This document shows, one piece after another, positions 56,796 to 64,000 of a DNA stretch of 64,000 bases. Position 1 is the stretch's first letter, and every line of letters starts with the position of its first letter. The translations under genes and the position numbers were made by a program. The notes below the pieces were generated by a model. It ran no database searches. It was not told the DNA's origin and saw only the letters and a program-made list of their open reading frames with translations. Origin of the DNA: Pseudomonas putida (lineage in GTDB: Bacteria; Pseudomonadota; Gammaproteobacteria; Pseudomonadales; Pseudomonadaceae); NCBI RefSeq assembly GCF_001941965.1, contig NZ_MKZO01000058.1, forward strand, positions 1 to 64,000, in the 5' to 3' direction.

Positions 56796-57378
56796 GGTCT
56801 TTCTCCTGACGAAAAGGGTTTGCTGTTCAAACCGCATACCGGATTCCTAGATTCGGAGCCCAGCCTTTCGGCTGTTCTGTGCGGTTGGCACGAGGAACCC
56901 GGTTGGCCCTGTTGCCACCGTCTTTCCTGAGTTCATCGCCCGCGACGGTCAGGAGCCCACGGACGTGGGCCGTCAAGGAGAAAAGCGGCAGGTAGGTGCG
57001 GCCCGCAGGCGCAGCCGAGGACACGGCCTGGCGCGCCTTGATGGCACGCGGCCACGGGCTACAGTCGCGAGCAAGGTGATGGAGTCAGGAGAGACGGCTG
57101 GACATGGCAACGGCCGCCGCGATGTGCAAACCGCACGCAAGCGAAGCGCGCAGGCCCGAAGCTGGAAGCCGGGCCGTAGGCGTCAGGGATGTGGAAGGCT
57201 GGCGAATGCCAGTCCCGTCAGGGATGAGCGGACAACGAACCTGGCGCAGCCTGGGCCGCGAAGCGGAGACGCACGCAAAAGCAATGCGCAACACGCAGAA
57301 CTTGCCAATTTCGCCGATTCTTGCCAAATTGGACTAAAATTCGCCAATCCATGAACTGTTTTGTTGGGCTATAGCGCC
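56796..57378. other. Intergenic region upstream of the defence-like operon
   Basis: A 583-bp gap between divergent genes. No gene is seen. Three GCCAA boxes at 57304, 57323 and 57343 are spaced 19-20 bp apart just before the HTH gene, with TAAAAT at 57335-57340 as a possible -10. They are candidate sites for the HTH regulator or RNA polymerase entry. Confidence 0.45.
57302..57349 (+). promoter_or_regulatory. Three GCCAA repeats at 19-20 bp spacing
   Basis: TTGCCAATTT, TTGCCAAATT and TTCGCCAATC start at 57302, 57321 and 57340, so the boxes are phased by about two helical turns. They end 30 bp before the ATG at 57379 and probably are operator sites of the operon. Confidence 0.45.
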
Positions 57379-57609
57379 ATGCCGACTGATAGCGACGAAA
57401 TTTTTACCATTGAAGAAATGGCCGTCTATTTAAAGGCGGGCAAGCGCACGGTTTACCGCTTGGCGGCAGAAGGAAAAATTCCCGCGTTCAAAGTTGGTGG
57501 GACTTGGAGATTCCTGCGTGCGGACATCGAGCACTGGATCAAGCAGCAGTCAACCGGCCAGTCCAAGGACGGTCTCCAAGAAAAATCGCGTAAAGAGGAA
57601 GAAAACTAA
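57379..57609 (+). CDS. Excisionase/AlpA-like HTH protein, first gene of the defence-like operon
   Basis: A 76-residue protein with a DNA-binding MerR-like fold: FTIEEMAVYLKAGKRTVYRLAAEGKIPAFKVGGTWRFLRADIEHWI (about 9-54), followed by a charged tail. It starts at ATG 57379; a TTG at 57361 is possible. Its TAA overlaps the DUF499 ATG (TAATG), so it is translationally linked. It may regulate the operon via the repeats upstream. Confidence 0.82.
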   Translation: MPTDSDEIFTIEEMAVYLKAGKRTVYRLAAEGKIPAFKVGGTWRFLRADIEHWIKQQSTGQSKDGLQEKSRKEEEN

Positions 57610-60422
57610 TGCTTGGATTGACTTTACGTGATGAGTTTCGGGGCAAGCGCCTCAAGGGGACGGCCATTGAGCTTTCCAACGACTCGAACACTGGCGCCAC
57701 TCAGATTGCCGCACAGGCATTCTTGGAGATTACATATCCGACCCACGATCTGCTGAAGGGGATCGAAGCCGTTGGTCCTAACCAAGGGCGGCCGGTGGTC
57801 GTGATCGGCGAGCGCGGCCTGGGTAAGTCGCACTTGATGGCAGCGCTCTATCACGCAGTCAATGATCCCGCATCGACGGGCGCTTGGCTTAACTCTTGGT
57901 CAAGCACGCTGGGTGATCCCAGCATCGGAAAGATTGCACTACGCGATGGCATGTTGGTCATTGGCGAGAGCTTGCACCGTCAACGCTATAAATTCTTGTG
58001 GGACTTGCTGTTCGAGCGCCATCCGCGTGGCGAATTCATAAAGGGCAAGTGGGAAGGCATGGGGTCGGCCAAAACTGACATACCCTCAGACAAGCTCATC
58101 ATCGAGCTGCTTGAGCATCGGCCCGCGATGCTCCTCCTCGACGAATTCCAGACTTGGTACGACGGCCTGACCAACACCAAGCAGTACCCCTGGAAGCAAT
58201 GGGCATTCAACTTCATCCAGATCCTGTCGGAGATCGCCAAAGAGCGCCCCGACCTACTGGTGTTGGTTATCTCCGTGCGCAATGGTAGCAGCGATGCTTA
58301 CCAGCAGGTACACCGCGTCAATCCGGTGGCCATCGACTTCAAGGCGGGAGGCAATGCCGAGCGCATCCAGCAGGATCGGCGGCGGATGCTGTTGCATCGC
58401 CTATTCGACAACCGTCTTCAGATTGCAGACGGCACCATCGAATCGCTGGTTGCACAACACGTCTACGAATACTTCCGCCTGCTGGATGTGCCGCCCGCTG
58501 AGCAGGATCGCAAGCGCCGTGAATTCACGGAGTCTTGGCCTTACGCACCCCACTTGCTGCGCCTGCTTGAGGAACAGGTGCTGATCGCCACAGATGCGCA
58601 AGAAACACGCGACATGATTCGCATCCTGGCCAACCTCTACAAGAGCCGAGGCGAAGCGGTGCCTGTGCTCACTGCTGCTGATTTCCGGCTGGATGACGAT
58701 GCTTCGGGCATTGGCGCACTGCTGGATTCAGTTTCCAACGAACACCACCGCACGCTGCGCGAAAAAGCGCAACACAACATCATTTCGGTGACCGAGGCGG
58801 TGTACGCCCACGCCAACCTTGCCCCTCACCTGCAAGAAATCTTGAGCGCGCTGTGGCTGCGTTCCATCGCCGTCGGCAATCTGGCCGGGGCCGATCCTGC
58901 CACGTTGCAGGTGGACATTACCCGCAACAAGCCGGTGGATGGCAATGCCTTTCAGGTCGAACTGGCAACTATTGTCGAAAACAGCTTCAACATCCACCAG
59001 GAAGGCCCACGGTTAGTCTTCCGCGAAGAAGAAAACCCTCGCGCCAAGCTGATGGCCTGCGCGCGCAATGACAAGCTATTCACCGATGGTTCCGACCAAG
59101 CACAGCTTGCTAGACAGGTTCGCTATGTCATCGGCGGCAGCGAAGATGCTGCTGGTAAGTTCCGCGTGATTGCGCTGCCGAAATCATGGCAGAACGATCC
59201 CTGGGCGTCGCTCGACGAAGCCGAGCAGCCGGAGCGCTGGGACGACCGGCTTCCCATTCTAGTGCTGCCCGAAGAACCGGAGAAAATTGACCAGACGCTG
59301 GGACGCTGGCTCAAGGATCACCTGCAAAAGCGCCGCAACACCATTCGTTTCTTGTTGCCTCGCGCCGGTTCCACCAATGCCTTTCAGGATCGCGATCTGC
59401 TCATCCTTGCCCGTGCCGAAATGAAGGCGCAGGAATGGAGTGGTCAGAACCCCGAATACAAGAAACTCCACAAAGAATTTGAAGGCACGCTGCGCGAGAA
59501 CCTGAAGAAGCGCTTCGATCGGTTTGCCATCCTGCACCGCTACGACCACCAGAACCCGCAACAATCGCTGCTCAGTGCGGAACATTTGAAAAAGCAAGGT
59601 GCACAAATCCCCGAGGGCATCGAGGAAACGCTGACCAACGACCTCTTTGTTCCCGAAGACTTCGAAGACCTCGTGCTTGAAGCCGCCTCTGAGAACGCAC
59701 CCCTCGGAAAGCTGCTGCGTGAACTGCAAGAGCCTCGTCCTGCGGGCCAGGATTGCATCCCCTGGCTGGGTGAAACCGCGATGAAGGAGCGCATCCTGCG
59801 GTTGTGCGCGCGCGGCAAGATCGCCATCAACCTGCGTAATCTGGAGCACCTGCAAACGCAAGCAGGCGAAGATGAGGATACCGCTTGGCGGCGCTTGCGG
59901 CCCAAGCTCTCATACACCGGGCGTCAGCTCGATGAAGTGTTCCTGATGGAACCCTCGGCAGTGTCCGCCACCGGCGGCACTACGCCACCCGCGCCGCAGC
60001 CGTCCGCTGGCGGCAATGGTGGAATGGGTGGCGATATCTTTGGCAGTGGCACAGCTTCCGCCATCGGTTTACAAGAGCCGCAGCCTGGTACCACATCCAC
60101 ACCAGCTGGCATTTTCGGTGACACGAGCAGCGGCGCCAAACCGCGTATCCCGCTCTCTAATCCACCCACATCGCCGCTCAACCTGATCGGCAAGCTCGAA
60201 GGCTGGGGCATCGGCCCAGCTTCTCCTGTCCACGAGGTCCGACTTGCCTCCATTGGCAGTGCAAACGGTCGTCTTGTGGACGCGTTGAAAATTGTTGGCG
60301 AAGCCAGCAGTGAAGTCACGATCAAGGTGTCTTCCGCCACCGGTGCGCAAATCAAAGAACTGCTCAAGAAGCTGCCCGATGGCATGACTTTCGAGCTGAG
60401 CCTTGAGAAGGAGGACAACTGA
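57609..60422 (+). CDS. DUF499-family ATPase (PglY-like)
   Basis: A 937-residue P-loop ATPase. Walker A is GERGLGKS (67-74) and Walker B is MLLLDEF (174-180). The N-terminal ATPase region and the following helical part match the DUF499 family, seen in phage-defence loci and related to PglY/BrxC of BREX. A Pro/Gly-rich linker (about 785-855, including GGNGGMGGDIFGSG) joins a small C-terminal domain. Start and stop overlap the neighbours (TAATG and TGATG), so it is the core of a tight operon. It probably moves on DNA or assembles a complex; this is inference. Confidence 0.82.
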   Translation: MLGLTLRDEFRGKRLKGTAIELSNDSNTGATQIAAQAFLEITYPTHDLLKGIEAVGPNQGRPVVVIGERGLGKSHLMAALYHAVNDPASTGAWLNSWSSTLGDPSIGKIALRDGMLVIGESLHRQRYKFLWDLLFERHPRGEFIKGKWEGMGSAKTDIPSDKLIIELLEHRPAMLLLDEFQTWYDGLTNTKQYPWKQWAFNFIQILSEIAKERPDLLVLVISVRNGSSDAYQQVHRVNPVAIDFKAGGNAERIQQDRRRMLLHRLFDNRLQIADGTIESLVAQHVYEYFRLLDVPPAEQDRKRREFTESWPYAPHLLRLLEEQVLIATDAQETRDMIRILANLYKSRGEAVPVLTAADFRLDDDASGIGALLDSVSNEHHRTLREKAQHNIISVTEAVYAHANLAPHLQEILSALWLRSIAVGNLAGADPATLQVDITRNKPVDGNAFQVELATIVENSFNIHQEGPRLVFREEENPRAKLMACARNDKLFTDGSDQAQLARQVRYVIGGSEDAAGKFRVIALPKSWQNDPWASLDEAEQPERWDDRLPILVLPEEPEKIDQTLGRWLKDHLQKRRNTIRFLLPRAGSTNAFQDRDLLILARAEMKAQEWSGQNPEYKKLHKEFEGTLRENLKKRFDRFAILHRYDHQNPQQSLLSAEHLKKQGAQIPEGIEETLTNDLFVPEDFEDLVLEAASENAPLGKLLRELQEPRPAGQDCIPWLGETAMKERILRLCARGKIAINLRNLEHLQTQAGEDEDTAWRRLRPKLSYTGRQLDEVFLMEPSAVSATGGTTPPAPQPSAGGNGGMGGDIFGSGTASAIGLQEPQPGTTSTPAGIFGDTSSGAKPRIPLSNPPTSPLNLIGKLEGWGIGPASPVHEVRLASIGSANGRLVDALKIVGEASSEVTIKVSSATGAQIKELLKKLPDGMTFELSLEKEDN

Positions 60423-61441
60423 TGGCGTTGGATGCTCAAATCTTGCGGTGCTTAACCCAGGAAAGCCCGAAAGACGCGTGGCGTATCATTACCGAACGGG
60501 CGTTAGAGATCGCCTCCAAACCGCTGGCCGAAGGCAATGCCCCCGGCGAAGTGGTCAAGCGTGACCGCGAAATTGGCGAGCTCGATTTATTCCTTGCCTC
60601 TAGCGGCTGGGATCTGTGGCAGACCTTCGGTCAACCCGAAATCAGTGGTGTGGAACGTACCTCAGACCGGCTTGCGCGCTGGTGGAACGAGCCCGGTTAT
60701 GGCCATAGCGCCGCTCGCGCCGTACTGATTCTTGACGCCCTCTCGTTGCGTGAACTGCCCTGGCTGCTGCAAGGAGCCAAAGAGCGTGGATTCACCCTGC
60801 ACACAGTGGCCGCTACTGCATCCGAGCTGCCTAGTGAGACCAACCCGTTTGCCCGCGCATTAGGGCTGGCCAGCCGCAGCCAGCTGCAAGCCAACGGCGG
60901 CGGCTTGGCGCATAAGCTGCAACCGGCACAGACCGAAACCATCGATCTGCCGTGGAAGGACTGCGCAGGCTTGGTGGGCAACGCCTCGGGCGCGAAAAAC
61001 TGGGTGTTCTGGCACCATTGGCCAGATGCCAAGCTGCACGATTACGGCGCAGGCCAGGGGCTGGAGCTTCTAACCAAAGATGCCGCGCAGCAACTTACCA
61101 GTGACGAATTTTGGGGCCTTGTTGAGCGCCTCGCCACTGGGCGGCGCTTGGTCATCACATCGGATCACGGCTACGCCGCCACTGGCTATTTCCCTGATGC
61201 CGATGGCGAGGTTGCAGCTCACCTTAAGCAAACTTTTTCAAGCGGACGCAGCAAGGCGGGGAATGGCGATGTTGGCCCCTTCGTTCCTCCGGTTGCATTG
61301 CAAATCGACAGCCCGCACGGCACACACCTGTTGGCGCTGGGCCGCAGAAAGTGGCGAAGTCAAGGCGGCTACCCGACGTTGACGCACGGTGGCCTCACTC
61401 TGCTGGAGGTGCTGTCGCCGTTTGTCGAATTGACCAAGTAG
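60422..61441 (+). CDS. Minimal PglZ-like protein
   Basis: A 339-residue protein. VLILDALSLRELPWLL (about 101-116) matches the opening of the PglZ domain with its metal-binding Asp (D105). RRLVITSDHGYA (241-252) supplies D248 and H249, and GGLTLLEVLSPFVEL (about 323-337) is the end of the domain. PglZ is an alkaline-phosphatase-fold protein required in BREX; classical forms are about 800 residues, so this one is compact. It overlaps the DUF499 gene by one base and precedes the SIR2-like gene by 10 bp. Confidence 0.75.
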   Translation: MALDAQILRCLTQESPKDAWRIITERALEIASKPLAEGNAPGEVVKRDREIGELDLFLASSGWDLWQTFGQPEISGVERTSDRLARWWNEPGYGHSAARAVLILDALSLRELPWLLQGAKERGFTLHTVAATASELPSETNPFARALGLASRSQLQANGGGLAHKLQPAQTETIDLPWKDCAGLVGNASGAKNWVFWHHWPDAKLHDYGAGQGLELLTKDAAQQLTSDEFWGLVERLATGRRLVITSDHGYAATGYFPDADGEVAAHLKQTFSSGRSKAGNGDVGPFVPPVALQIDSPHGTHLLALGRRKWRSQGGYPTLTHGGLTLLEVLSPFVELTK

Positions 61442-61451
61442 GCGGCGCGAT

Positions 61452-62528
61452 ATGTCAGCGGCAGAATTACCCGACGATCTCTTCACAGAAATACAGGGCG
61501 CTTTCCGCAAAGCGCCTGTGCTCCTTGTGGGGTCTGGATTCTCTTGCGGCTATGGCCTTCCTGGCATGGGGGCTCTGGCAGAGCATCTGGCGAATACCGT
61601 TAATGGCGTGCTGACCACAGATGAAGCAAAAAGAGCTTGGGCACAGGCAATTGAGGCGATCAAGGAGAACCTCGAGACAGGGCTGAACAATATTCCGTTG
61701 GGCGCTTTGGGCTGGGGTGAAATCGTATCAGCCATACGCAGTGAAACTGCTCGGCTGATTCTTGATAGAACGGCCACCGCTGAATCGAAGGTACTTCAAG
61801 AAAAAGCGGATGGTGGACACGCGCCATCACGCCTTCTGAATCGTCTGTTCGATGGCTCGCCGCAGAACGCAGAAGGCATTCACGTCATCACGACCAACTA
61901 CGACACGTTGTTGGAGCTATTCTGCGATCTGGCAGGACTTCCCATTGATACAGGTTTCACCGGATTTCGCAGACGAAAACCTCGCCCCCGACCAATTTTC
62001 GAGAATCAGTACACGCGAATCTGGGTTGCTGAGAAGCGTCAGCAGCAATTCGACCACAGGCTTTGCAAAACCGTTCGCATCTACAAACCTCATGGTTCCA
62101 TTAGTTGGTTGACCACCGATGAAGGGCCGATGGAGGTTCTTAACGATGCCGCAACAGCAGGTCGGGCGATCGTAGTACCCGGCCCGTCAAAGTACCAAGA
62201 CGCGCTGGTCAATACCTTGTTCGACGAAATGCGAACCGCGATGAATGCAGCACTCGCCGATGCTCAAGCGTTGTTGTGCATTGGGTTTGGCTTCAATGAC
62301 GACCATCTGCAAGGCGTCATCAAACGCCGTCTGGCGGCAGGCATGCCCGCAATCATTGTCACGCGCGACTCCACCCCGAACATTGAACAACTGCTTGGCG
62401 AACACCCTCACGTGATCGCTGTGTTCAGGAACGGTGACGGGGCGGTTTGCCGCTGGAATGGGAATGCATTGCAGTCTTCAGAGCCAATCTGGCAACTTGA
62501 TGATTTTCTGAAAAAATTTGTGGAGTGA
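61452..62528 (+). CDS. SIR2-like NADase
   Basis: A 358-residue protein with the sirtuin NAD-binding core. GSGFSCGYGLPGM (27-39) is the glycine-rich loop, ITTNYDTLLE (about 146-155) the Rossmann segment, YKPHGSISW (211-219) carries the catalytic His (H214), and IGFGFNDDHL (277-286) the later loop. Such stand-alone SIR2 proteins in defence loci usually act as NADases that deplete NAD during phage infection, often with HerA. The gene is followed at 7 bp by the HerA-like gene. Confidence 0.85.
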   Translation: MSAAELPDDLFTEIQGAFRKAPVLLVGSGFSCGYGLPGMGALAEHLANTVNGVLTTDEAKRAWAQAIEAIKENLETGLNNIPLGALGWGEIVSAIRSETARLILDRTATAESKVLQEKADGGHAPSRLLNRLFDGSPQNAEGIHVITTNYDTLLELFCDLAGLPIDTGFTGFRRRKPRPRPIFENQYTRIWVAEKRQQQFDHRLCKTVRIYKPHGSISWLTTDEGPMEVLNDAATAGRAIVVPGPSKYQDALVNTLFDEMRTAMNAALADAQALLCIGFGFNDDHLQGVIKRRLAAGMPAIIVTRDSTPNIEQLLGEHPHVIAVFRNGDGAVCRWNGNALQSSEPIWQLDDFLKKFVE

Positions 62529-62535
62529 GGCAAGG

Positions 62536-64000
62536 ATGAGCATTTTCAACTTCACCGACGAGCAGTCACTGGGCGAAGTCCGCAGTGTGGAAACCTCGCG
62601 GATCACCGTGCGGGTGACGGACGGTCAACGTCTGCAAAAAGCGCGCGTCGGTCGACTGGTTGCCATCCAGTCGATAGGGGATGAATGGCTGATCGGCATC
62701 ATCGAAAGAGTGTGGCGACATCCGGTGGAGCTGCCGACGCTACCAGAAGCTGACCCACCAGCGGATATTGCCGGTGTTCCCCAGGAGGAAAACGGCGTGT
62801 CGATCAGCTTGGTCGGCACCTATCGCGCTCGGGATGGGCAGCGCAAGGACACCTTCACGCGCGCAGTTTTCATGCTGCCGGAGATCAACCGCCCTGTGTT
62901 CCCCATCGAAGAAAAGTCTCTCGAAGAATTCATGGGCATCTTGAGTGCATCGTCCAAGGCGGATGCCGCTGCCCCGCTCAAGGTCGGCACCTACACCCTG
63001 GATGGCAAGGCCAGCGCCTATATCGATGGCGACAAGCTTTTTCAGCGCCATGCCGCGTTGCTGGGCAGCACCGGCTCAGGGAAATCCTTCACTGTCGCAT
63101 CCATCCTAGAGCAGTCCGCGCAACTGCCTCACGCCAATATCGTTGTGCTCGATTTGCATGGCAAGTATTCGAGCATGAAATTCGCGTCGCATTACCGCAT
63201 CGCTGGTATTGGCGACATTAAAGCCAAGAAAGACGGGGCGATCTTCCTGCCGTTCTGGCTGCTGACCTATGACGAAATGCAATCGGTATTTGTGGATCGC
63301 TCAGGGGACAACGCACCCAATCAGGCACTTGCGCTCATGGATTCCGTCATGGTGATGAAGCGCGCAGCTATAGCCGCGCTTGGCAAGCCAGACCTTTTGG
63401 AAGGCTTCACCGTTGATACACCAGTACCTTACCGGCTTGCTGATCTTGTCCAATCGCTGGATGACAAAAACGACGAAGCTATTGATACCGGGGAAACCTA
63501 CGCAAGCGGCCCGCGCAAAGGTCTAGCCAAAACCGAAAAAGGTCCATTGAATGGCAAGCTCTCGCGCTTCCTCATTCGCTTGAAAACCAAGATGAACGAT
63601 CGCCGTTATGCGTTCATGTACCAGGCGCCGGAGGAATACGAGACTTACGAGGCGCTGCACGATCTCGCAAAAAAACTGCTCGGCACAGGTAACGTCAACG
63701 ATGGCGTCAATCCTGGCATCAAGATCATCGATTTCTCGGAAGTGCCCTCGGATATCCTGCCGGTAGTGGTGGGCTTGGTCGGGCGGCTGATCTACCAAGT
63801 TCAGTTTTGGAGCAGCCCGGGCGAAGACGGTGATGCGCGCCACCCTATTGTCATCGTCTGCGATGAGGCGCATCTCTATCTGCCAAGCAGTGCCGCTTCC
63901 ACCGGGCCGCTGGAAAAGCGCGCCCTGGAAAATTACGAGCGCATCGCCAAGGAAGGCCGTAAATATGGCGTTGGTCTAATGGTGGTCAGTCAGCGTCCCT
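62536..64000 (+). CDS. HerA-like DNA translocase ATPase, cut by the window edge
   Basis: At least 488 residues; the end lies beyond the window. The N-terminal HAS-barrel region (about 10-60) precedes Walker A GSTGSGKS (177-184) and Walker B IVIVCDEAH (438-446, with D443 and E444), then NYERIAKEGRKYGVG and VSQRP. HerA ATPases form hexameric rings that move along DNA and pair with nucleases, or with SIR2 as in the two-gene Sir2-HerA defence system. ATG 62536 follows GAGGCAAGG. It is the fifth gene of the operon, and more may follow. Confidence 0.88.
   Translation, partial: MSIFNFTDEQSLGEVRSVETSRITVRVTDGQRLQKARVGRLVAIQSIGDEWLIGIIERVWRHPVELPTLPEADPPADIAGVPQEENGVSISLVGTYRARDGQRKDTFTRAVFMLPEINRPVFPIEEKSLEEFMGILSASSKADAAAPLKVGTYTLDGKASAYIDGDKLFQRHAALLGSTGSGKSFTVASILEQSAQLPHANIVVLDLHGKYSSMKFASHYRIAGIGDIKAKKDGAIFLPFWLLTYDEMQSVFVDRSGDNAPNQALALMDSVMVMKRAAIAALGKPDLLEGFTVDTPVPYRLADLVQSLDDKNDEAIDTGETYASGPRKGLAKTEKGPLNGKLSRFLIRLKTKMNDRRYAFMYQAPEEYETYEALHDLAKKLLGTGNVNDGVNPGIKIIDFSEVPSDILPVVVGLVGRLIYQVQFWSSPGEDGDARHPIVIVCDEAHLYLPSSAASTGPLEKRALENYERIAKEGRKYGVGLMVVSQRP

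What the first reader, a model, noticed from the sequence alone, without database searches (positions are those of the whole stretch)
60422..61441. Unusually short PglZ-like protein
The visible motifs match the PglZ domain but the protein has only 339 residues, compared with about 800 for classical PglZ. It may be the core catalytic domain without the accessory parts, a useful minimal form.
Basis: partly seen in the sequence, partly recalled or inferred. Interest (0 to 1): 0.6.

Follow-up and report, generated by a model that had tools for sequence, protein, structure and literature searches.

The report
Short PglZ nuclease in modular defence operon
The short protein looks like a complete, stand-alone PglZ enzyme of an already described type of bacterial anti-phage operon; the less expected part is that this operon carries other whole defence modules that replace each other at fixed places between its core genes.

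Summary
Confirmed: the 339-aa ORF is a PglZ-fold enzyme. An AlphaFold2 model matches PorX (Z 15.7) and BREX PglZ (Z 12.6) over its whole length. The length is the family norm, not truncation. It is known in kind: DUF499–PglZ–methyltransferase–small protein–SNF2 helicase matches the "Type-3 BREX-Related" system, whose stand-alone PglZ was published in January 2026. That paper's main text never mentions SIR2, yet here a SIR2–HerA pair lies between pglZ and the methyltransferase gene. In relatives this junction is empty in 56 of 87 loci and otherwise holds SIR2–HerA (9), the IetAS protease system (9) or other cargo (13). The window's nearest relative (96% PglZ) carries IetAS; DNA identity stops 22 nt before the pglZ stop and resumes 5 nt before the methyltransferase start. 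A second junction takes an OLD-like ATPase plus DUF4276 (8 of 9 inserts; 0 of 31 in the first). Slot IetS and SIR2 form lineages apart from the stand-alone relatives sampled. Best reading: a restriction-like chassis with slots for interchangeable effector modules. No function was tested.

The parts
57361..57609 (+). Small excisionase-type HTH protein (82 aa), likely regulator; relative of MAD1 just below its cut-off
   Evidence: Pfam HTH_17 65.9 bits; NCBIfam antiphage_MADS1 78.1 bits vs cut-off 80; a relative measured upstream of DUF499 in 41 of 93 loci
57609..60422 (+). DUF499-type AAA+ ATPase (937 aa), core ATPase of the operon
   Evidence: Pfam DUF499 29.2 bits vs cut-off 23; gap to PglZ over 250 b in 1 of 93 loci
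60422..61441 (+). Stand-alone PglZ (339 aa), the finding
60734..60736 (+). codon D105, metal-1 ligand (PorX-Fj D237)
   Evidence: invariant in A2; aligned with a BREX-type PglZ D; PorX ligands from passages of PMC10951265
60839..60841 (+). codon T140 in P-S-E-T-N-P, predicted nucleophile (PorX-Fj T271)
   Evidence: invariant; aligned with the T of LPSYT in BREX-type PglZ
61025..61039 (+). codons D202-x3-H206, metal-2 ligands (PorX-Fj D360, H364)
   Evidence: both invariant in A2; H206 is E in the two haloarchaeal relatives
61163..61168 (+). codons D248-H249, metal-1 ligands (PorX-Fj D414, H415)
61385..61387 (+). codon H322 in HGG, metal-2 ligand (PorX-Fj H499)
   Evidence: this part of the model has pLDDT under 50, so by sequence only
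61442..64000 (+). Cargo slot 1 (pglZ|methyltransferase junction); runs on past the window to contig position 64339
   Evidence: empty or filled in relatives
61452..62528 (+). SIR2-like cargo protein (358 aa); TTNYD and HGS invariant in 8 aligned slot copies
   Evidence: PADLOC SIR2 8e-92, Pfam SIR2_2, alignment
62536..64000 (+). HerA ATPase cargo (597 aa from the ATG at 62536; ends at contig position 64329, past the window)
   Evidence: PADLOC HerA 1.5e-222 and Pfam DUF87 95.3 bits for the whole protein; GSTGSGKS and CDEAH invariant in 8

Best explanation
The protein is the stand-alone PglZ of a Type-3 BREX-Related (DUF499-centred) anti-phage operon. Likely working: the methyltransferase marks self DNA; the DUF499 ATPase, the SNF2 helicase and the small protein detect unmarked incoming DNA; PglZ, a two-metal phosphodiesterase with T140 as nucleophile, is the nuclease effector that nicks or cuts it. 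Between pglZ and the methyltransferase gene the operon has an exchangeable cargo slot that here holds a SIR2-HerA pair, most likely a second, abortive layer (NAD depletion and/or nuclease) expressed with the core. Shown here: predicted fold, conserved ligand set, gene order, slot, cargo exchange and loss, slot lineages. Inferred: nuclease activity, self/non-self logic, NAD depletion, co-expression, and any wiring of cargo to core.
For: Fold. Ligands: with PMC10951265 passages. [quoted passage not shown] System: operon components and the Type-3 BR description (PMC12839542 section 33). Slot: junction gaps, states on the PglZ tree, DNA breakpoints, decayed and scarred cargo, slot-specific content, slot lineages.
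Against: No assay. In BREX the nuclease-dead PglZ mutant still defends well, so PglZ cleavage is not the whole story there. The iSTAND identity of the 170-aa protein was not tested (no hits of that kind). MTase and helicase stay far below NCBIfam equivalog cut-offs (87.9 vs 1000; 306.9 vs 610). The AlphaFold2 model is moderate and poor at 253-261, 270-293 and 302-324. The PglZ tree is weakly resolved (15 of 86 inner branches starred, 41 open), so 22 cargo changes may be too many; starred branches alone force 3-4 per state. Cargo is also clustered on the tree (0 of 200 shuffles as low as 22), so it is partly inherited with the core. The relatives are the best 80 of 213, so cargo frequencies are not unbiased.
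Confidence: 0.78

Rival explanations
1. The short PglZ is a degraded or truncated BREX PglZ on its way out.
For: Family profiles barely see it; it lacks the N- and C-terminal parts of BREX PglZ.
Against: 80 aligned sequences keep all seven active-site residues; PglZ lies within 250 b of DUF499 in 92 of 93 measured loci.
Confidence: 0.03
2. PglZ here is not a DNase but a phosphodiesterase on (cyclic) oligonucleotide signals or other phosphoesters, gating the other effectors.
For: Closest solved fold is PorX, above BREX PglZ (Z 15.7 vs 12.6); PorX PglZ is described as acting on cyclic and linear oligonucleotides, and BREX PglZ cleaves them too (PMC12839542 section 18; PMC12205998 passages).
Against: Operon context is restriction-like (MTase, helicase, DUF499) and BREX PglZ also cuts dsDNA. 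No cyclase was recognised among the operon proteins scanned.
Confidence: 0.2
3. The slot is only a recombination outcome: independent defence genes settle between co-oriented core genes, and there is no functional coupling.
For: Cargo is dispensable: 56 of 87 loci empty, a decayed pair in L016 and a scar in L023. The inserted gene BrxU works on its own in a Type I BREX operon (PMC8565348 passages).
Against: Slot content is specific: OLD-like ATPase plus DUF4276 in 8 of 9 slot-2 inserts and 0 of 31 slot-1 inserts; slot IetS and SIR2 are lineages apart from the stand-alone ones sampled.
Confidence: 0.45

Closest known systems
Stand-alone PglZ of Type-3 BREX-Related (BR) systems (Rakesh & Krishnan 2026, PMC12839542)
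   Same: DUF499 ATPase, methyltransferase, nuclease-free SNF2/BrxHII-like helicase, separate PglZ of core size with full metal set
   Different: SIR2-HerA between pglZ and the methyltransferase gene; that paper's main text has no hit for SIR2, sirtuin, NADase or subtilisin. Its supplements were not seen.
PglZ of Type I BREX (e.g. E. fergusonii, Acinetobacter)
   Same: Same fold over 385-749 (Z 12.6); same D, T, DH and H positions in a BREX-type profile
   Different: Longer protein (879 residues in 9zn5_B) with extra N- and C-terminal parts; BrxC/PglX/BrxL context
PorX effector part (type IX secretion regulator)
   Same: Best structural match, helical bundle plus PglZ domain, same zinc ligands
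   Different: PorX has an N-terminal CheY-like domain and no restriction context
SIR2-HerA two-gene defence pair
   Same: Adjacent SIR2 and HerA genes, motifs kept
   Different: Outside this operon the SIR2 relatives seen are distant: at most 34% over a segment in 369 class genomes; on plasmids under 60%, at most 31% in the rows listed
BrxU (GmrSD) inside a Type I BREX operon (PMC8565348)
   Same: Complete second defence gene inserted between core genes
   Different: One cargo type in the locus described; here many alternatives at one junction
BREX-Related Capture (BRC) systems (PMC12839542)
   Same: PglZ and HerA in one locus
   Different: BRC has DUF6079, STAND and DUF4007 proteins, a PglZ with an N-terminal helicase-like domain, and universal HerA; here HerA is optional cargo

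Membership tests
PglZ / alkaline-phosphatase superfamily | alpha/beta/alpha PglZ fold | tested here: met
   AlphaFold2 pLDDT 73.4, pTM 0.79; 16 Foldseek matches at E 0.001 or better, all PorX; PorX Z 15.1-15.7, BREX PglZ Z 12.6, other rows Z 8.8 or less
PglZ / alkaline-phosphatase superfamily | seven two-metal active-site residues (D,T,D,H / D,H,H) | tested here: met
   D105, T140, D248, H249, D202, H206, H322 invariant in 80 sequences; correspondence to PorX by motif, spacing and profile alignment, not by superposed coordinates
PglZ / alkaline-phosphatase superfamily | Pfam PF08665 curated cut-off | tested here: not met
   no hit at E 1; the model misses this branch of the family
PglZ / alkaline-phosphatase superfamily | metal-dependent phosphodiesterase/nuclease activity | not testable with these tools
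   needs protein
Type-3 BREX-Related system | DUF499 AAA+ ATPase | tested here: met
   PF04465 29.2 bits over cut-off 23, matched stretch 156-341
Type-3 BREX-Related system | N6-methyltransferase of the DUF1156 kind | tested here: met
   PF01555 30.7 bits over 26.7; PADLOC HmaB 1.3e-36; DUF1156 itself 16.8, below its cut-off 24
Type-3 BREX-Related system | BrxHII-like helicase without fused nuclease | tested here: met
   helicase domains and a weak RapA_C only, no nuclease domain in Pfam at E 1; best PADLOC hit BrxHI/BrxHII 344.9 bits
Type-3 BREX-Related system | separate stand-alone PglZ with metal residues | tested here: met
Type-3 BREX-Related system | iSTAND protein (in 82% of taxa per the paper) | not tested
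   a 170-aa protein lies between MTase and helicase genes; no family hit of that kind; its fold was not predicted
Canonical BREX (Types 1-3) | long multidomain PglZ with BrxC/DUF6079 | tested here: not met
   PglZ is 339 aa; the ATPase hits DUF499, with no DUF6079 hit at E 1
BREX-Related Capture (BRC) | DUF6079, DUF4007, universal HerA | tested here: not met
   no DUF6079 or DUF4007 hit in the operon proteins scanned; SIR2-HerA in 9 of 87 scored loci
SIR2-HerA defence pair | adjacent SIR2 and HerA with catalytic motifs | tested here: met
SIR2-HerA defence pair | NCBIfam anti-phage SIR2 / HerA equivalog cut-offs | tested here: not met
   45.2 vs 500 bits (SIR2) and 177.6 vs 850 (HerA as cut at the window end): relatives, not members of those models
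MADS | MAD1 model cut-off | tested here: not met
   78.1 vs 80 bits

The most novel reading that the evidence does not exclude
The operon is a programmable defence chassis: fixed internal docking sites accept interchangeable effector cartridges (SIR2-HerA, IetAS, OLD-like ATPase plus DUF4276, GmrSD, Schlafen-type) that have evolved as slot-specific lineages and are triggered through the shared DUF499-PglZ-helicase sensor rather than by sensors of their own.
Probability: 0.3. Interest if true: 0.75.

Novelty: new variant of a known kind. Interest (0 to 1): 0.5.

Why it matters
The short PglZ itself is a known, convenient minimal PglZ for biochemistry: one catalytic core without the BREX accessory domains. 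The larger point is organisational. If one restriction-like core keeps exact internal slots in which unrelated effector modules replace each other, then near-identical natural operons that differ mainly in cargo are ready-made controls for asking how restriction and abortive layers work together, and whether effectors such as SIR2-HerA and IetAS can be fired by a foreign sensor.

Tried and rejected
Single-sequence AlphaFold2 of PglZ gave a useless model (pLDDT 37.9); the alignment-based job replaced it. phmmer of the single protein against PDB found nothing. Rfam and tRNA scans of the window found nothing. E. coli genomes (blastn, distant mode) and the phage collection (tblastn) hold no match to the short PglZ; of 57 genomes in the relatives search only the window's own has it. 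Viral-contig scans with SIR2 and with IetS found no relatives. Reverse-strand ORFs in slot 2 looked like a cargo cluster at first but are antisense to DUF4276. S108 was first taken as a possible nucleophile; the PorX spacing and the P-x-x-T-x-P motif point to T140 (the motif as a nucleotide-pyrophosphatase hallmark is recalled). Truncation of a BREX PglZ was rejected on conservation.

Rows dropped or not counted: A2 holds the window and 79 of 80 genome-collection loci (L084, partial, left out). A3 holds the window, 55 of these 80 and the 6 viral-collection loci. The haloarchaeal L011 and L012 were left out of the PglZ tree, and 4 of its 91 rows had no methyltransferase on the contig and were not scored; one of them, L053, has IetAS directly after PglZ before its contig ends. 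Of six PF08665 loci meant for the BREX-type profile, five were used, and only L106, L107 and L110 gave long frames. In the IetS tree 7 of the 10 fetched stand-alone loci were used (three were left out as partial), and in the SIR2 tree L016 (decayed) and L105 (same gene as L103) were left out.
Full report
What was checked. The ORF 60422-61441 (+) is present as described, 339 aa. On its own it is almost invisible to family libraries: no Pfam or PADLOC hit, one NCBIfam hit to BREX_PglZ_3 at E 0.024 covering residues 299-337. With relatives added it is clearly PglZ. A profile of 8 family members finds the solved PglZ 9nv3_C at E 1.7e-4 and PorX chains at 0.06 or worse. An AlphaFold2 model from 62 aligned sequences has pLDDT 73.4 and pTM 0.79. 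Foldseek's 16 matches at E 0.001 or better are all PorX. VIA-align 2, a second look at Foldseek's candidates, gives PorX-Fj Z 15.7 (266 residues, model 1-339 on PorX 138-516), BREX PglZ 9zn5_B Z 12.6 (270 residues, on 385-749 of 879), and then ENPP5, a phosphoethanolamine transferase, phosphonoacetate hydrolases and others at Z 8.8 or less, covering about 86-339. So the protein is the catalytic domain plus the helical segment that precedes it in PorX and BREX PglZ.

Active site. In PorX-Fj, zinc 1 is held by T271, D237, D414 and H415, and zinc 2 by D360, H364 and H499 (passages of PMC10951265). In this family D105, T140, D202, H206, D248, H249 and H322 are invariant in 80 sequences. DH248-249 and H322 align with PorX and 9nv3_C by HMMER. 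A global profile alignment of 91 family members with BREX-type PglZ (three long frames, two short ones) puts D105, T140, DH248-249 and H322 on the corresponding D, T (LPSYT), DH and HGG positions, E 2.1e-10. That alignment does not place D202/H206; D202 rests on the HMMER alignment with 9nv3_C, H206 on the PorX D-x3-H spacing. H206 is glutamate in two haloarchaeal relatives. The correspondence is by sequence; no coordinates were superposed, and H322 lies in a low-confidence stretch of the model.

What system it is. The window ends inside the second gene after pglZ, so the contig was read onward. The operon is HTH, DUF499 ATPase, PglZ, SIR2, HerA, a 1072-aa methyltransferase (contig 64340-67558), a 170-aa protein and a 929-aa SNF2 helicase ending at 70866, with family hits. 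Apart from SIR2 and HerA this matches the Type-3 BREX-Related system of Rakesh and Krishnan (PMC12839542; [quoted passage not shown] The short PglZ is therefore known in kind. The iSTAND identity of the 170-aa protein was not tested.

The slot. Relatives came from GTDB genomes (80 loci, the best of 213), plasmids (6 of 41 records fetched) and viral contigs (6), and the core genes were mapped by tblastn. Gaps over 250 b occur at HTH|DUF499 in 0 of 41, DUF499|PglZ in 1 of 93, PglZ|MTase in 31 of 89, MTase|small in 5 of 79 and small|helicase in 9 of 79 loci. Of 87 loci scored for slot 1, 56 are empty (gap under 250 b; the median over all 89 loci is 12 b), 9 hold SIR2-HerA (the window included, one decayed), 9 IetA-IetS (AAA ATPase plus S8 protease; names from PADLOC and Pfam), and 13 other cargo. 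Among these 13 are one GmrSD (L022), four of the TIGR04255 kind (L080 scanned, L083, L086 and L089 by 63% similarity to it), and two related ~310-aa unknowns with a distant third. Among the 80 genome loci alone: 47 empty, 29 filled, 4 unscored; all 6 viral contigs are empty. Slot 2 holds an OLD-like ATPase plus DUF4276 in 8 of 9 cases and a Schlafen-AlbA protein in 1 ('OLD-like' is my label: Pfam AAA_21, best PADLOC model HEC-01A, AriA lower). That ATPase is found in 0 of 31 slot-1 inserts (Fisher p 1.2e-7, relatedness of loci not corrected for). Slot 3 holds Schlafen-AlbA proteins in 3 of 5, with a ParA-like partner in L068 and L090. Slots 1 and 2 are both filled in L031, L060, L080 and L086.

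Exchange and loss. On a PglZ tree of 91 rows the four slot states need 22 changes (shuffled mean 29.4, least possible 3). Two cautions: the tree is weak, with starred branches alone forcing 3-4 changes per state; and no shuffle of 200 was as low as 22, so cargo is partly inherited with the core and not freely shuffled. The window's nearest relative, Stutzerimonas stutzeri KOS6 (L013, 96%), carries IetAS; the next, S. kunmingensis (L014, 95%), SIR2-HerA; a supported clade of 7 is split 4 IetAS to 3 SIR2-HerA. At DNA level window and L013 are 95.5% identical up to 22 nt before the pglZ stop, show no match over 150 b across the slot, and are 92.3% identical from 5 nt before the methyltransferase start. 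The pglZ end tends to go with the cargo: it reads EIS(K/R) in 8 of 9 IetAS loci, 0 of 9 SIR2-HerA loci and 0 of 56 empty ones. One Hydrogenophaga MAG has two copies, one with each cargo (L018, L020). Loss is visible too: Comamonas (L016) keeps only SIR2 1-195 and HerA 495-603, and Pseudomonas fluorescens PS723 (L023) has a ~70-b gap that resembles a HerA 3-prime tail by eye, of which 15 nt match at 93% (E 0.002); the scar is thus suggestive, not firm.

Slot lineages. In plasmids, SIR2 relatives are 34 records at 80-90% identity and 102 below 60% (the distant rows listed reach 31%); HerA relatives are 34 at 90% or more and 606 below 60% (listed up to 45%). The short PglZ also has 34 records at 80-90%, and all 15 high-identity SIR2 records listed are among them. 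In 369 class genomes the other SIR2 matches are at most 34% over a segment; their six loci, from five genomes, carry HerA but no PglZ in the short flanks. In 398 phylum genomes no other SIR2 reaches E 1e-30. IetS from L013, searched in 398 phylum genomes, matched 14: two at 67% and 98%, both in the PglZ|MTase slot; ten fetched loci at 31-43%, none with PglZ or MTase in the short flanks. Of the five match rows not fetched then, three loci were looked at later: two are stand-alone IetAS at 31-41%, and one is a 59% fragment with a stop, at a contig end, without IetA, PglZ or MTase within 3 kb, which is the one closer relative outside the slot. On plasmids all 97 IetS matches are below 60%, 37% at best among the rows listed. 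In trees, slot IetS (11) is one side of a branch against 7 stand-alone copies with support 100; slot SIR2 (8) against 5 with support only 83. Most slot rows were chosen by their PglZ neighbours, so only searches are independent of that choice.

How it most likely works. BREX PglZ nicks and linearises dsDNA with metals; its T538A mutant loses the activity and about 3 logs of defence but still protects, and the section heading seen says that methylation does not depend on the nuclease (passages of PMC12205998). By homology, T140-dependent cleavage by this PglZ is the likely restriction step of a core that marks self through its methyltransferase. SIR2-HerA would be a second layer; its motifs are intact in 8 aligned copies, and NAD depletion is inferred from other SIR2 defence proteins, not tested. 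That phage inhibitors of BREX favour embedded backups such as PARIS is argued in PMC12839542 (section 35) and applies here only as inference. The stronger idea, that the core fires the cargo, is suggested by slot specificity but not shown.

Known or new. PMC12839542 describes nucleases (GmrSD/HNH, OLD-TOPRIM, Schlafen, PIN) within BREX and BR loci, and PMC8565348 an inserted GmrSD gene, brxU, between brxC and pglX. Non-nuclease cargo such as SIR2-HerA and IetAS at one exact junction, with slot lineages, was not found in the papers searched: search listings, and word searches in PMC12839542. Its supplements were not readable here, and preprints and most subscription papers are not in the library, so this is absence from that library only.

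Noticed in passing
L007 9875-12001 (K. michiganensis plasmid pK516_KPC): The DUF499 match starts at residue 214 of the window's protein, so the part with the N-terminal P-loop is not matched, and no HTH hit lies upstream; the locus lies near blaKPC-2. Described only; the other 33 such plasmids were not looked at.
   Followed up: no
contig C58 70969-73331 (L002 14969-17331, minus strand): A YhcG/DUF1016 PDDEXK protein (PADLOC PDC-S02) and a tyrosine integrase follow the operon, and ParB and DUF932 genes precede it, which suggests a mobile genomic island.
   Followed up: partly
window 57361-57609: The HTH protein scores 78.1 bits against the MADS regulator MAD1 model (cut-off 80): different defence operons may share a regulator type.
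   Followed up: no
L011 11758-12648 and L012 11758-12648: Haloarchaeal plasmids carry a PglZ of about 296 aa between DUF499 and a methyltransferase gene, with E in place of metal ligand H206.
   Followed up: no
L045 10990-11928, L065 11000-11923, L032 11002-11949: Unknown ~310-aa proteins in slot 1 with no Pfam hit; L032 is only about 25% alike to L045. Candidate unrecognised effectors.
   Followed up: no
L018 and L020 (Hydrogenophaga MAG PRO26): Two copies of the operon in one MAG with different slot-1 cargo, IetAS and SIR2-HerA; binning error not excluded.
   Followed up: no
L051 3639-6723: A distant IetA/IetS-like pair (32% and 24%) lies on the other strand just before the HTH of an operon whose slot 1 is empty.
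   Followed up: no
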